Source: Polyangium spumosum
GTDB lineage: Bacteria > Myxococcota_A > Polyangia > Polyangiales > Polyangiaceae
NCBI RefSeq assembly: GCF_009649845.1
Contig: NZ_WJIE01000005.1
Coordinates: 186,001-250,000, forward strand
DNA: 64,000 nucleotides
Direction: 5' to 3'
The position numbers and the translations under genes were made by a program. The notes under the pieces are model-generated. The model had not been told where the DNA came from and did no database searches. It was given only the letters and a program-made list of their open reading frames with translations. Positions 59,117 through 62,725 of the stretch are shown here, in pieces (within the stretch, counting starts at the first letter, position 1; every line of letters begins with the position of its first letter).

Positions 59117-59373
59117 ACGCGTCTCGAAGTCTCGCGCGGCCGTCTCGAAGTCTCGTGCGCGAACCCCGAAGGTCTCGCCCACGCGTCTCCAGGTCTCGCC
59201 CACGCGTCTCAAAGTCTCGTGCGACCGTCCCGAAGGTGAGCGAACGAACCCCGAAGGTCTCGCCCACGCGTCTCCAGGTCTCGCGCACGCGTCTCAAAGT
59301 CTCGTGCGCCCGCCTCGAAGGTGAGCGAACGAACCCCGAAGGTCTCGCCCACGCGTCTCCAGGTCTCGCCCAC
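59117..59373. repeat. 85-bp tandem repeat array, left part (interrupted by a transposon)
   Basis: Units start at GAACCCCGAAGGTCTCGCCC (59161, 59246, 59331), exactly 85 bp apart and nearly identical. Each unit contains smaller ~21-bp elements of the form (A/G)GTCTCGCCCACGCGTCTC. Degenerate copies extend left to ~59117. The third unit stops at base 43 where the transposon begins, and continues at 62510. Noncoding; the frames are open on several phases but encode only low-complexity sequence. Confidence 0.88.
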
Positions 59374-59420
59374 GGGTGGTGCGGTAATTACCGCAGTCGC
59401 GCGTCAATTGACCGCAGTTT
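59374..59420. repeat. left transposon end with transposase-binding-like motifs
   Basis: After the terminal inverted repeat lies a perfect 16-bp palindrome TGCGGTAATTACCGCA (59380-59395) and a related AATTGACCGCAGTTT (59406-59420) that overlaps the transposase stop codon. The recurring AAT(T/-)GACCGCAGT core is also at the right end. Confidence 0.75.
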
Positions 59421-60546
59421 ACTCCCCTCCTTTCGGGTCATCGAACCCAGGGAACAGGGAGAGTTGGCCGATCGGCGGAGCCTTCGGGCGCCACGCGAAG
59501 AGGTCAAGCTGCCCGGTCGGATCGGCAACCGGCTCGACGGGGATCGCAACGGGCACCGGGGCGACCGGAGGCGGTTCATGGTGACGCTCTCCCGATGCCT
59601 TCCCGCCCCCCACGACGCGGAGGAAGCCGCGCCCGTTCGGAAGCTCCCGCGCCGTTGTCTCGGGGACGCGGGCCGCAAGCGGCTGACGTTCCGGGGGCTC
59701 GCACGGGCCCGCGGTGAGCAGGGCGGCCTGGAACTCTTCGATCGTCCACACGTGGTCGGTCAAGCCGAGCTGCATCGCCGGGGTCACGCGGAGCGTCTTC
59801 ACGACCGTTCCCAGGTTGTACCAGGCGTAGTTCAGCGCGACGGCGGCCTTGTGCCTGTCGATGCGCTTGCTGAACGCGAGGCAAAGCCGACGCATGCGCC
59901 CGATGTGGTGACGCATCGTCGCGTTGTTCCGCTCGACGTAGGCCGTGCTCGCCGCGTCCAAATCCGGGGCGCCGAAGATCGCCCGCTTCGTGATGAACGG
60001 ATCCCGGGGGGGCTCGTACCGATGATCGGCCGAACCCTCGCGCCGCCCGCGCTTCGTGTAGTTCTTCACGGTCTGCGCGTAATCGACGCCGGGACCGAAC
60101 GCGGAGCCGATCGCAGAGACGTAGGGCGCGAACCCGTCCGAGGTCATGGCTGGCATCACGACCAGGCGGGCGCGAAGGTCGGTCATGAAGGCGTCCGTCG
60201 ATGCCTGGTCGCGCTTGCCCACGTACCAGGCGATGACGAAGCGGCTCGACGCGTCCAGGGCGACGAAGGTGTACGCCTCGCCGACGTCCGGCCCGTCCTC
60301 TGGGGTCACGCGGGCCTGCTTCTTCCCGACGTAGCTCCAAATCTCATCGACGGTCACGAGGCTGCAATGCAGGCCCCGCGCGAGCCGGTTGTGAAGGTTC
60401 ACCGCGCCCTCGCCAAGGGAGAGCGCGAACCGTCCGATCGTCTTCTGTTGGACGCCGGTCATACGCTCGACGGCGCGCTCGCTATTGCCCTCTACCAGGG
60501 CCGCAAGGACGCGGAGACGCTTCTCTTCGGAAAGGAAGTTCGCCAT
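59419..60546 (-). CDS. IS1-like DDE transposase
   Basis: 375 aa. An N-terminal helix-turn-helix segment (residues 5-45, LVEGNSERAVERMTG) precedes an RNase H-fold core whose acidic triad can be read as D67 (VTVDEIWSYVGKK), D137 (MTSDGFAPYV) and E205 (AYVERNNATMRHH), followed by the IS1 hallmark LCLAFSKRIDRHKAA. The last ~95 residues are an unusual Pro-rich tail ending PIGQLSLFPGFDDPKGGE. The stop codon lies inside the left end of the element. It has no frameshift, unlike classical IS1. Start at 60546 (MANFLSEEKRLRV). Confidence 0.85.
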   Translation of the reverse strand: MANFLSEEKRLRVLAALVEGNSERAVERMTGVQQKTIGRFALSLGEGAVNLHNRLARGLHCSLVTVDEIWSYVGKKQARVTPEDGPDVGEAYTFVALDASSRFVIAWYVGKRDQASTDAFMTDLRARLVVMPAMTSDGFAPYVSAIGSAFGPGVDYAQTVKNYTKRGRREGSADHRYEPPRDPFITKRAIFGAPDLDAASTAYVERNNATMRHHIGRMRRLCLAFSKRIDRHKAAVALNYAWYNLGTVVKTLRVTPAMQLGLTDHVWTIEEFQAALLTAGPCEPPERQPLAARVPETTARELPNGRGFLRVVGGGKASGERHHEPPPVAPVPVAIPVEPVADPTGQLDLFAWRPKAPPIGQLSLFPGFDDPKGGE

Positions 60547-60708
60547 CGGGCACCAGCCCCGGCGACGGTCTATCGGGCGCCCCTCTGCGCCCTCGCCGCG
60601 TCGCCGTTGACGAACTTAAAGTACCACGAAACGCGCCGACAACGCGGAGAATCGGCGCGCAGGTCGGACACGGAATGTCCTAGCGATGTGGTGGGCCCGA
60701 AGTGCCGG

Positions 60709-61323
60709 TCAGTGCTTCGTCGCGATCCAATCGACGATCATCTTGATGATCGGTCCCATGGTCACAAGAAGCGAGACGAGGGTCTTGCCATAGCTCTCCA
60801 CACGCCCCTTGCGAGGCTTGTCCAGCTTGGCTTCTTCCTCAAGTCCCTCGACCATTTCGATCGCTGTACTGCGCTTGTCCTCGGGCAGCCTCTGGGCCGC
60901 TTCGCGAAGCGCGGCGAAGTGCCCGATAATCTCGGCTGGCGCATTGATCTGCTGTGCCACGCTCATCGTATTGTGCGAGCCGGTCTGGACGCCACCCACC
61001 GTCCCGTGGAAGTGGTTGACTTGATGAATCACGGCCGCTGGAAAATGGTCCGTGTCTTCGTCCGGTGCTTCGCGAGACTGTTCGATCTCTACAACGCCTT
61101 GGTGTTTGATCATTAACAGGCTGCCGTGAAACTTGGCTAGCCCTTCGTCTGCAAGCCACCGGAACGCCGATTCGGCGTCACTGGGGGAGATACCCTCCTT
61201 GGTGAACCCATCGAAGAACTGATCGCCAATTACGTATGCATGTGTATCGCCGTCGGTCTCGTCGTAAAGGCGATTTAGAACGCACAGTCTGTGCTGCTTC
61301 TTTTGTTCAATTCGAGCAATCAC
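60709..61323 (-). CDS. transposon passenger: winged-helix protein with C-terminal membrane helix
   Basis: 204 aa, GTG start at 61323 preceded by GGAG. Residues ~1-75 look like a winged helix (KKQHRLCVLNRLYDETDG, AESAFRWLADEGLAKF). A middle segment has a striking HQVNHFHGTVGGVQTGSHNT run followed by MSVAQQ. The end is a hydrophobic helix (TLVSLLVTMGPIIKMIVDW). I do not recognise the family, although GVQxGSxNT motifs are found in several poorly known bacterial conflict-type proteins. It lies between the transposase and a divergent 62-aa gene with only 28 bp separating the starts. Its membrane tail and HTH suggest a membrane-tethered sensor or effector, which is inference. Confidence 0.6.
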   Translation of the reverse strand: MIARIEQKKQHRLCVLNRLYDETDGDTHAYVIGDQFFDGFTKEGISPSDAESAFRWLADEGLAKFHGSLLMIKHQGVVEIEQSREAPDEDTDHFPAAVIHQVNHFHGTVGGVQTGSHNTMSVAQQINAPAEIIGHFAALREAAQRLPEDKRSTAIEMVEGLEEEAKLDKPRKGRVESYGKTLVSLLVTMGPIIKMIVDWIATKH

Positions 61324-61351
61324 ACGAACTCCGTTCTCGTAGAGGTACTAC

Positions 61352-61540
61352 ATGAGTGACAGACAAGAGCAGGCCAATGGCACAACGTTGACGAACGCGC
61401 AGATCGCCACGATCATTGAAGCGGCGAATGAGGTGCGCATCGCTCGGAAGGTGCTGAGCCATAAGCTCATTCACCTTGATGACGTGCTCGAAGATGTTGG
61501 TTTGGGGAAACGGCGCGAGCAGGTGCAGGAGCACGGCTAA
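61352..61540 (+). CDS. transposon passenger: 62-aa helical protein
   Basis: 62 aa. ATG at 61352 with AGAGGT seven bases upstream. The sequence is helical and polar (NAQIATIIEAANEVRIARKV, then LSHKLIHLDDVLEDVG), with no cysteines or membrane helix. No family recognised. It is the only plus-strand gene inside the element and is divergent from the winged-helix gene with a 28-bp gap, so it may regulate or be regulated with that gene. Confidence 0.55.
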   Translation: MSDRQEQANGTTLTNAQIATIIEAANEVRIARKVLSHKLIHLDDVLEDVGLGKRREQVQEHG

Positions 61541-61747
61541 CTCGTGAGGTACGCGATCCCCTTGACCTGGAATCGCCGCCCTGCCATGGTCGGCCGCATC
61601 CCTGGCAGGATGTTGGGCGAGCATGACGGGGCGCAAGCCTCACGGCTCGCCCTTCTACTTGGTGGACCCGACGAGCCCGACATGGGCGCGCCGACCGGAC
61701 GGCGAACCGCCCGGCGCGTGCATGGATGGTCGGTTACAGACGGGGCG

Positions 61748-62005
61748 TCAAGAGGCGGGAGAGGTGGCGGGCGCGGCGGTGTCGATCCGGGCTTCCAACT
61801 CCCGGATGCCGCGGAGCAGTTCCCGACGCAGGTAGGCGCGGGCGTGGACGCGTTGCGACGGCGCCGCCGTGGCATCTTCGGCGAGGGCCCGAAGGTTCGC
61901 GACGACGGGGCGCAGCTCGCCCGCGTAGGCCGCCAGCGCGGCCGGGTCGGTCGTCTCGACGGGCGCCCGAAGCCGGGCCCGATCCCGAACACGCGATCGG
62001 CTCAT
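61748..62005 (-). CDS. transposon passenger: small Arg/Ala-rich protein
   Basis: 85 aa. ATG at 62005 overlaps the stop of the helix-turn-helix gene (ATGA). Charged helical sequence: VRDRARLRAPVETTDPAALA, then GELRPVVANLRALAEDATAA and LRRELLRGIRELEARID. No signal peptide, no recognisable family. Translationally coupled to the upstream regulator-like gene; a possible partner of it. About 200 bp without a gene lie downstream, to the 62-aa gene's stop. Confidence 0.5.
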   Translation of the reverse strand: MSRSRVRDRARLRAPVETTDPAALAAYAGELRPVVANLRALAEDATAAPSQRVHARAYLRRELLRGIRELEARIDTAAPATSPAS

Positions 62006-62355
62006 GCTGCCCTCCCGATGACCGGCGTGGTCACGACGAGCTTGCCGCCGAGAAGCACCTCGACCGCGACGCCCGCGGCGGCGGCGATGCGGATGGCGAG
62101 CGTGCCCGTGGGGGAGCTCTTCGGGTTCGCGGCGCGGCGGAGCGTGCTCGCCGGGATCCCGGTCATGGCGGAGAGCGCGCGGAAGCTCCCGAACGCGCGG
62201 CGGAGCTTGCGGATCGCGACGCGCACGTGGCGCGCTTCGTCCTCGGAGAGCATGAGCGCGCCCGACTTGCGGCGGCGCGGCGTCTCGGGTTCGGTGGGCG
62301 GGCAGGGCGGATCGTTCTCTTGGCCGTATGAACCGGGCCATGACAGATCGTGCAT
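62002..62355 (-). CDS. transposon passenger: HTH (XRE-like) regulator
   Basis: 117 aa. Start at 62355 (MHDLSWPGSYGQEND); a longer frame to 62442 has no ribosome site. The segment HVRVAIRKLRRAFGSFRALS, then AMTGIPASTLRRAANPKS and TLAIRIAAAAGVAVEVLLGG is the four-to-five-helix pattern of an XRE/Cro DNA-binding domain. Cytoplasmic. It ends by coupling to the 85-aa gene and could control the element's genes. Its promoter would lie in the right end, where the AATGACCGCAGT motifs are. Confidence 0.6.
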   Translation of the reverse strand: MHDLSWPGSYGQENDPPCPPTEPETPRRRKSGALMLSEDEARHVRVAIRKLRRAFGSFRALSAMTGIPASTLRRAANPKSSPTGTLAIRIAAAAGVAVEVLLGGKLVVTTPVIGRAA

Positions 62356-62473
62356 GGGCGTGACCTCGTGCAAGCGTGGTTGCGTCAAGTCCGCCTCGGA
62401 GGTCGGTAGCCCTCCGGGGCGGGCGTCTTTCGGACGACGCACATCCTACGCGTTTCCGATCACGATTCGGCCG

Positions 62474-62509
62474 AATGACCGCAGTTTCAGCCAAATGACT
62501 GCACTACCC
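62474..62509. repeat. right transposon end with two AATGAC motifs
   Basis: AATGACCGCAGTTT (62474-62487) and AATGACTGCACTACCC (62494-62509) are direct repeats 20 bp apart; the outer one is the terminal inverted repeat. The same core appears twice at the left end. Confidence 0.75.
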
Positions 62510-62556
62510 GCCCACGCGTCTCGAAGTCTCGTGCGACCGCCTCGAAGTCACGCGCG
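62510..62556. repeat. 85-bp repeat remainder, right of the transposon
   Basis: GCCCACGCGTCTC-gaag-tctcgtgcgacc continues the third unit exactly where the left copy is cut at 59373, including the duplicated GCCCAC. Sequence similarity ends at about 62556. Confidence 0.8.
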
Positions 62557-62725
62557 GGCGCCCCCCACCTGCGCCCCTTCGAACCCAGCCGACACGAAGA
62601 CGACCCCCTGAGCCCCCGCGCCCGCACACTTCTCGCTTGACTTCCACGCCCGCTCTCCCCCTGCCCCCGCCTCCCCATCCGCCCCTCTCCTCTTGCCCGG
62701 CGCGTGCTATCCGTTCGAGGCCGCC

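What the first reader, a model, noticed from the sequence alone, without database searches (positions are those of the whole stretch)
59374..62509. A 3.1-kb transposon with unknown passenger genes, defined to the base by its insertion in a repeat array
Terminal inverted repeats (13 of 16 bases), a 6-bp direct duplication GCCCAC and perfect restoration of an 85-bp repeat unit on removal fix both ends. Besides an IS1-like transposase with an unusual Pro-rich tail, it carries a winged-helix/membrane protein, a divergent 62-aa protein, an XRE-like regulator and an 85-aa partner, none of a known cargo type. The 6-bp duplication is shorter than the 8-9 bp usual for IS1. It may be a new element class carrying a small regulatory or defence module.
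Basis: partly seen in the sequence, partly recalled or inferred. Interest (0 to 1): 0.85.

Follow-up and report, generated by a model that had tools for sequence, protein, structure and literature searches.

The report
Cargo-swapping transposon parked in repeats
This is a complete 3.1-kb jumping element, related to the simple insertion sequence IS1, that sits inside a DNA repeat array; most relatives found in its own and one related genus also sit in repeat arrays and carry different genes in the same slot, some of them likely anti-phage genes, and its transposase ends in motifs predicted to bind the replication clamp, which would steer it to such sites.

Summary
The element is real; its ends and duplication need correcting. 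It spans 59375-62508 (3134 bp) with IS1-like ends and a perfect 8-bp duplication, CGCCCACG; the 6-bp anomaly was a misparse. The genome holds 17 such elements counting this one (2.7-5.1 kb). I delimited 48 in the bacterial family.

New findings. (1) By Tandem Repeats Finder, 25 of 34 genus and 10 of 14 other family insertions (9 of 10 in one genus, 1 of 4 in four others) split a tandem array, mostly of period 21 or 43 bp; control 4 of 220. Nineteen sites written out share one register. (2) The Pro-rich tail ends in QLDLF and QLSLF, the published beta-clamp consensus; 34 of 34 genus transposases carry such a motif, 0 of 12 distant ones. (3) XRE and 85-aa genes are backbone. The cargo slot is 60700-61542 (204-aa winged-helix plus 62-aa gene); relatives with 83-94% identical arms carry unrelated cargo, and at least 6 of 48 elements have known or candidate defence genes.

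Verdict: an IS1-type transporter IS that favours arrays, a new variant of a known kind. Clamp guidance and a defence role for this cargo are inferred.

The parts
59375..62508 (.). whole element, 3134 bp
   Evidence: IS1-like ends, perfect 8-bp duplication; same kind of ends in relatives
59367..59374 (.). target duplication copy CGCCCACG, left
62509..62516 (.). target duplication copy CGCCCACG, right
59117..59374 (.). left part of the host tandem array, period 21/85 bp
   Evidence: TRF on window
62509..62558 (.). right part of the host tandem array (right limit by eye)
59375..59421 (+). left end with subterminal repeats of the word CTGCGGT/ACCGCAG (by eye)
   Evidence: sequence
62467..62508 (-). 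right end with the same subterminal words (by eye)
   Evidence: sequence
59419..60546 (-). IS1-type transposase, 375 aa, single frame, Pro-rich C-terminal tail
   Evidence: PF03400 35 bits over cut-off 24.1; NF033558 IS1 59.7 bits, under its cut-off 100
59497..59511 (-). QLDLF, predicted beta-clamp-binding motif (residues 346-350)
   Evidence: consensus QLxLF from PMC4549789
59452..59466 (-). QLSLF, second predicted beta-clamp-binding motif (residues 361-365)
60700..61542 (.). variable cargo slot (largely not shared with 4 or more of the other 47 elements)
   Evidence: E0-F1 and E0-F2 comparison
60709..61323 (-). cargo gene, 204 aa: N-terminal winged helix, then a G-T-V-G-G-V-Q-T-G block and helices
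   Evidence: relative in element E9
61352..61540 (+). cargo gene, 62 aa, divergent from the 204-aa gene; co-occurs with it in E9
61554..61770 (.). conserved mostly non-coding block at the edge of the cargo slot, shared in whole or part with F2, E8, E9, E13, F7, F3
61748..62005 (-). backbone gene, 85 aa, in 14 of 48 elements (this one included) plus a partial match in F11
62002..62352 (-). backbone XRE-like regulator, 116 aa
   Evidence: HTH_3 E 0.0018, below Pfam cut-off; 27 genus matches, 24 inside delimited elements

Best explanation
The window holds a complete 3,134-bp IS1-type transporter element (59375-62508, 8-bp duplication CGCCCACG) whose transposase likely uses a C-terminal beta-clamp-binding tail to help it insert into tandem-repeat arrays, and whose central slot carries a likely exchangeable two-gene module that is predicted to act in phage defence or a similar accessory role. 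Shown: the ends, the duplication, the common insertion register in related arrays, conserved arms with different cargo in relatives, and the tail motifs as sequence. Inferred: that the motifs bind the host clamp, that clamp binding at paused or gapped replication in repeats and hairpins explains site choice (with a target preference around ACG|CG setting the exact register), that the XRE-like and 85-aa backbone genes regulate transposition, that cargo is exchanged by recombination between conserved arms, and that the 204-aa/62-aa pair is a defence or stress module.
For: Ends and duplication. Seventeen transposase copies in the genome, this one included, all delimited with perfect 8-bp duplications. 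Array insertion by TRF: 25 of 34 genus, 10 of 14 other family elements, 0 of 8 distant, control 4 of 220. By 20-mer recurrence: 24 of 34 and 10 of 14; controls 54/1500, 42/1000, 55/1135 and 12/538. Common register in 19 sites written out. Of 10 arrays of the window's type, 5 hold 6 elements and 5 have no match to this transposase (read). Clamp-type motif in the last 45 residues: 34 of 34 genus (exact QL[SD]LF in 22), 11 of 14 family (exact in 7), 0 of 8 distant; shuffled tails 30 of 10200; none in 12 distant transposases. QLxLF is an experimentally tested clamp motif in another transposase (PMC4549789). Six of 13 non-array sites have a perfect stem of 9 bp or more, control 8 of 209; array sites 5 of 35 and, by my count from the printed list, distant sites 1 of 8. 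Cargo difference: E0 vs F1, arms 86.8% and 87.9%, no match between; E7 vs E8, arms 94.5% and 91.2%, no match between. Defence-type cargo in relatives: PDC-S42, PDC-S13, PD-T4-10 B, PD-T4-10 A, PDC-M32A, HEC-01 A/B type and PDC-M14B.
Against: No experiment. Array insertion outside the own genus rests on one other genus (9 of 10 elements); in four further genera it is 1 of 4 (handles, sites). The motif/array association is confounded with ancestry: the distant elements lack both. Thirteen elements with a motif are not in arrays, among them both motif-bearing ones of the four further genera (K5, K9); two without it are (K14, and K2 whose frame ends early). Clamp binding alone cannot set a fixed register, so a sequence or structure preference is needed as well. 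The window's own cargo has no significant defence hit, most cargo ORFs have no family hit, F17's PDC-S13 protein also matches a type I specificity-subunit model, and I ran no background rate for defence hits in ordinary genes. The model of the 204-aa protein is poor beyond about residue 100.
Confidence: 0.5

Rival explanations
1. The transposase recognises the repeat sequence itself (core around ACG|CG with flanking boxes about 21 bp apart) or its bent, helically phased shape; clamp binding only raises activity, as in another insertion sequence.
For: Nineteen sites share one register, and E0, E4, E5 and E14 use the same word CGCCCACG, read on one strand or the other. Array periods are mostly 21-22, 41-44, 64 and 85 bp. 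A stronger clamp motif raised transposition of another IS (section title and passages of PMC4549789).
Against: Arrays used in the other genus have different unit sequences. Several non-array sites are hairpins instead.
Confidence: 0.33
2. No targeting: insertion is random and only copies in neutral intergenic arrays survive.
For: The window's array lies between predicted genes and probably tolerates insertions.
Against: 42 of 1000 noncoding-like window positions are repeat-like, against 15 of 17 insertions in this genome by the same test. The common register is not explained. Distant relatives persist outside arrays, 0 of 8 in arrays.
Confidence: 0.12
3. The 204-aa and 62-aa genes are accessory transposition or maintenance genes (for example a toxin-antitoxin-like stabiliser) rather than defence cargo.
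For: The two are divergent neighbours and co-occur in E0 and E9; the 204-aa protein starts with a winged helix.
Against: Found in 2 of 48 elements, so not needed for transposition.
Confidence: 0.3
4. One reading: a new element class with a 6-bp duplication.
For: GCCCAC is repeated at both sides, and 13 of 16 bases match if one flanking base is added at each end.
Against: The 8-bp parse with IS1-like ends fits this element and 30 of 34 genus elements exactly.
Confidence: 0.02

Closest known systems
IS1 family insertion sequences
   Same: DDE_Tnp_IS1 domain, GGT..TG-type inverted ends, 8 (once 9) bp duplication
   Different: 3.1 kb with passenger genes, a single reading frame, Pro-rich tail with clamp motifs, XRE and 85-aa backbone genes; below NCBI's IS1 equivalog cut-off. 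The ends, size and two-frame layout of classical IS1 are recalled, not from a call.
Transporter IS (tIS)
   Same: an IS with passenger genes unrelated to transposition (definition seen in passages of PMC3129680 and PMC9330008)
   Different: each of the 48 elements compared has an unshared slot between conserved parts, and most of them sit in repeat arrays
REP-targeting insertion sequences (ISPsy8, ISPa11, ISPpu9, ISPpu10, ISRm22, ISRm19)
   Same: copies insert at the same position of a repeated extragenic sequence (passages of PMC1525189)
   Different: those six belong to the IS3, IS110 and IS4 families and target REP palindromes; here an IS1 type lies in tandem arrays of several unit sequences. 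IS1 itself appears in that paper's table, in the passage I saw, as 6 of 101 copies near REPs in one Shigella genome.
Clamp-binding transposases (IS1634 and others; Tn7)
   Same: C-terminal QLxLF motif, sometimes two (PMC4549789, passages and part 1 of the Results)
   Different: in what I saw, the motif is tied to clamp binding and transposition rate; a link to tandem-array insertion was not in it
Candidate defence family PDC-M14B (PADLOC)
   Same: C-terminal part of the 204-aa family, E 3.4e-7 for the E9 relative
   Different: window protein only E 0.0043; the N-terminal part is not covered by the match

Membership tests
IS1 family | IS1-type DDE transposase | tested here: met
   PF03400 35 bits, cut-off 24.1
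IS1 family | NCBI equivalog IS1 transposase | tested here: not met
   NF033558 59.7 bits, cut-off 100; so IS1-type in the broad sense only
IS1 family | 8-9 bp target duplication and GGT..TG-like inverted ends (recalled) | tested here: met
   30 of 34 genus elements perfect 8 bp, one perfect 9 bp, one 7/8, two without. The end choice used the duplication in its score.
IS1 family | short element with transposase only (recalled) | tested here: not met
   3134 bp; shortest of 56 delimited elements 2651 bp
IS1 family | two overlapping frames joined by frameshift (recalled; classical IS1) | tested here: not met
   single 375-aa frame
Transporter IS | passenger genes not needed for transposition inside IS ends | tested here: met
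   cargo differs between relatives with 83-94% identical arms
[quoted passage not shown]
   target is a tandem array, not REP; same-register insertion does hold for the 19 sites written out
Clamp-binding transposases | C-terminal QLxLF motif | tested here: met
Clamp-binding transposases | physical binding to DnaN | not testable with these tools
   needs a binding assay
Anti-phage defence system | sequence match to a defence family | tested here: inconclusive
   window cargo E 0.0043 to PDC-M14B; E9 relative 3.4e-7
Anti-phage defence system | protection against phage | not testable with these tools
   needs plaque assays

The most novel reading that the evidence does not exclude
A lineage of IS1-type transposons has acquired a clamp-binding tail that homes it to tandem repeats and hairpins, where replication pauses. 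This turns host repeat arrays into docking islands that collect different transposons side by side, each a vehicle for a swappable, often anti-phage, gene cassette.
Probability: 0.3. Interest if true: 0.85.

Novelty: new variant of a known kind. Interest (0 to 1): 0.7.

Why it matters
It would give bacterial tandem arrays a role as landing pads and provide a natural test of whether the replication clamp chooses where a transposon lands. It also points to a compact source of uncharacterised accessory and defence genes: each element carries a small cassette marked off by conserved arms, so new systems can be found by reading the slot.

Tried and rejected
Rejected: the 6-bp duplication; XRE and 85 aa as cargo; 'arrays are only what intergenic DNA looks like'. 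Tried without result: an orthologous empty site. Part of the downstream gene (173 bp) has 71-72% matches in all five other genus genomes, but TRF at those loci shows no comparable array; arrays elsewhere in the same genome without this transposase serve instead. Relatives of the 204-aa protein: 4 others found in a word-based search of 5.8 billion proteins, 1 weak hit in a Pseudanabaena contig, none in viral contigs, none in the other 97 family genomes searched. Fold search of the model gave no match at E<=0.001; the listed weak ones are winged-helix regulators and unrelated proteins. Other IS families as control were too few to judge: 7 DDE_Tnp_1 and 5 rve matches outside this family, several at contig ends; TRF found arrays of period 15 or more in 2 of the 11 loci scanned. 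Literature searches for IS1-type cargo elements, repeat or tandem-array targets, or transposase and clamp listed nothing whose title or abstract start describes this; only open-licence papers are held and each list shows at most 20. One search (names of defence families) listed unrelated papers.

Dropped before counts: 4 genus transposases without two ends (L032, L033, L035, L044) and two fragments in G005:C110; 6 of 20 family loci (L057-L060, L066, L070); 4 of 12 distant loci (L078, L080, L085, and L086 with only a false-looking pair). Further family and phylum rows were not fetched. For family and distant sets a perfect 8- or 9-bp duplication was a condition of being delimited.
Full report
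Element and ends. The window sequence shows an array of 21-bp units interrupted at 59374/62509. Scoring of inverted ends plus duplications gave one clear solution: 59375-62508, ends GGTGGTGCGGTAATT and GGTAGTGCAGTCATT, flanked by CGCCCACG on both sides. TRF finds the window array at 59117-59374 with periods 21 and 85.

Relatives. The transposase has 17 matches in its own 10.76-Mb genome, itself included, and 40 match rows in the 6 genomes of the genus. I delimited 34 elements (17 in this genome, 2.73-5.13 kb, and 17 in the others); 30 have a perfect 8-bp duplication, one a perfect 9-bp, one 7 of 8, and two none. The end score used the duplication, so its perfection is not an independent test; the shared end words are. 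In the bacterial family 22 of 98 genomes, 11 of 48 genera, have a match at E<=1e-40; of 20 loci fetched from other genera, 14 were delimited. Ten of these 14 come from one genus (g19), four from four others. In the phylum sample 16 of 235 genomes match, this one included; of 12 distant loci fetched, 8 were delimited, 2.65-4.22 kb long. None of the 56 is as short as a bare insertion sequence would be (shortest 2651 bp).

Insertion into arrays. With flanks rejoined, the 20-mer at the site recurs within 400 bp in 24 of 34 genus and 10 of 14 family sites; controls are 54 of 1500 random window points, 42 of 1000 noncoding-like window points, 55 of 1135 points in the loci and 12 of 538. TRF independently places the junction inside an array in 25 of 34, 10 of 14 and 0 of 8 distant elements, against 4 of 220 random points. 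Split by genus, the 10 of 14 are 9 of 10 in g19 and 1 of 4 in the others, so the habit is well shown in two genera only. Periods are mostly 21-22, 41-44, 64 and 85 bp. I wrote out 19 sites from related 21/22-bp arrays, each turned to one array orientation; they can be set in one common register, and the transposase gene points either way. The choice of these 19 and of their orientation was mine. In this genome, matches with at most 1 mismatch to the window's unit form 10 clusters of two or more; 5 of them hold 6 elements (E0, E14, E11, E7, E4+E5) and 5 have no match to this transposase (my reading; one search lists its 2-mismatch matches only in part). Three different elements lie in one array on contig C15 (118722-128030). 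Of the 13 sites outside arrays by TRF, 6 have a perfect stem of 9 bp or more within 60 bp, including one element at the centre of a palindrome (E16), against 8 of 209 controls; array sites have it in 5 of 35 and distant sites in 1 of 8 (the last count is mine from its list).

Tail motifs. The 'unusual Pro-rich tail' ends ...QLDLF...QLSLF (residues 346-350 and 361-365). A motif of this kind (Q, L or M, any, L, F/L/W, or Q-L/M-x-F-F) lies in the last 45 residues in 34 of 34 genus transposases and 11 of 14 family ones, exact QL[SD]LF in 22 and 7; shuffled tails give 30 of 10200. Twelve distant transposases, 270-299 aa as read, lack the tail and the motif. PMC4549789 (2015; I saw passages and part 1 of the Results) gives Q-L-x-L-F at the C-terminus as the beta sliding clamp-binding motif of transposases, tested by binding and mutation for an IS1634 element. 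Motif and array insertion go together (32 both, 13 motif only, 2 array only, 9 neither; Fisher p 0.002), but the distant elements lack both, so shared ancestry explains part or all of this; in the four further genera the two elements with a motif (K5, K9) are not in arrays, and of the two without it one is (K14) and one is not (K13).

Backbone and cargo slot. Comparison of 48 elements shows conserved parts and at least one unshared stretch of 150 bp or more in each. In the window it is about 60700-61542, the 204-aa and 62-aa genes. F1 (genome G002) shares arms of 86.8% and 87.9% with E0, F2 83.4% and 85.3%, with no match between; E7 and E8 share arms of 94.5% and 91.2% with no match between. 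So cargo differs within nearly constant arms; how it is exchanged is inferred. The XRE-like gene has 27 matches at E<=1e-8 in the genus. Twenty-four lie in delimited elements, one beside the transposase of an element with only one end found (L044), one at a contig end beside a canonical element end (L074), and one is unresolved (L075). The 85-aa gene is in 14 of 48 elements, this one included, with a partial match in F11. Other subgroups carry instead a protein of which one copy has a weak sigma-70 region 2 match (E 1.7e-4, below cut-off) and another none.

What the cargo does. A composition rule proposed 134 cargo ORFs in 47 of the 48 elements (F12 gave none). I scanned 128: 72 for the genus set (70 of 75 proposed, with two hand-chosen substitutes) and 56 of 59 for the family set. 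Named or candidate defence matches fall in at least 6 of 48 elements: E4 PDC-S42 (4.2e-95), F17 PDC-S13 (5.2e-62, with a type I specificity-subunit match at 1.5e-31) and F16 PD-T4-10 B (9.2e-31), with one cargo ORF matching PD-T4-10 A (1e-22, member not named by the tool, presumably F16's second gene); K1 PDC-M32A; K7 HEC-01 A-type ATPase with a HEC-01 B-type partner; E9 PDC-M14B (3.4e-7). One search shows 25 of 99 families, so further matches may be hidden; seven other large family-set proteins scanned alone gave none. I did not count one RmrA match (7.8e-6) and generic regulator matches. Others are DUF4747 (E7) with a neighbouring protein that looks like a membrane protein by eye, and P63C (F4). 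Most cargo ORFs have no match. The window's 204-aa protein has 4 other relatives found among 5.8 billion proteins plus the E9 copy at 32%. Its model is confident only in the N-terminal part with the winged helix (residues about 10-100; mean pLDDT 65.7). Relatives of the 62-aa and the 204-aa gene are found together, divergent, in E0 and E9 and, at phmmer E<=0.01, in no other of the 48; a weak pairwise match of the 62-aa protein to an 86-aa cargo protein of E2 (3e-4 for that single comparison) did not reappear there. The two are probably one module. PDC-M14B similarity of E9's copy, and the company of other defence-type cargo, make a defence role the leading guess, at about 0.35.

Mechanism proposed. 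Transposase binds its own subterminal words, its tail contacts the clamp on newly replicated or repaired DNA, and a preference for ACG|CG-type sites within repeats or hairpins fixes the point of insertion. Arrays would collect several elements without harm to genes. Backbone regulators would keep transposition low, which would fit 17 elements of which no two are alike (best arm identity among them 94.5%). All of these steps are inferred from sequence.

Known or new. It is IS1-type in the broad sense (PF03400 met; NCBI IS1 equivalog not met) and a transporter IS by definition. Fixed-position insertion into repeats is known for IS3, IS110 and IS4 elements in REP sequences; IS1 is not among the five families named there and its table lists 6 of 101 IS1 copies near REPs in one Shigella genome (PMC1525189 passages). 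The union of IS1-type transposase, clamp tail, tandem-array insertion and an exchangeable cargo slot was not seen in the listings of my searches.

Noticed in passing
window 61554-61770: A block at the edge of the cargo slot is conserved in whole or part in otherwise different elements (F2, E8, E9, E13, F7, F3). By eye it holds a TTGAC...CATGGT promoter-like pair, inverted repeats and a short ORF starting MTGRK.
   Followed up: partly
L014 (G000:C15:118722-128030): Three different elements of this family lie side by side in one 21-bp array, each with the same duplication CTACGACG.
   Followed up: partly
G000 arrays; flanks of the elements: Spacings between repeats at several sites follow 21, 43, 64, 85 bp rather than exact multiples of 21, as if helical phase (about 10.6 bp) were kept; other arrays keep 21, 42, 63.
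   Followed up: no
L041 (F16) and similar elements: Subgroups without the 85-aa gene carry a core protein that in F16 has a weak sigma-70 region 2 match; a sigma-like gene as a transposon backbone part would be unusual.
   Followed up: partly
L023 (G000:C2:217373-221106): Element E16 sits at the centre of a palindrome (CCCCCGCA|TGCGGGGG within a longer inverted repeat) and carries a 269-aa protein that looks like an Ntn-hydrolase by eye, with no Pfam match at E<=0.01.
   Followed up: partly
L027, L029, L041: Elements F3, F5 (genome G003) and F16 (G004) use one shared non-array target beside a 13-14 bp perfect hairpin.
   Followed up: partly
window 62510-62570 and G000:C5:660939-660999: The DNA right of this element is 95% identical over 61 bp to the DNA right of element E14, so two different elements hit the same position of two near-identical arrays.
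   Followed up: partly
L073: A Pseudanabaena contig encodes a 26% relative of part of the 204-aa protein (residues 44-199, E 9e-7 among candidates), so the cargo family may reach outside the phylum.
   Followed up: no
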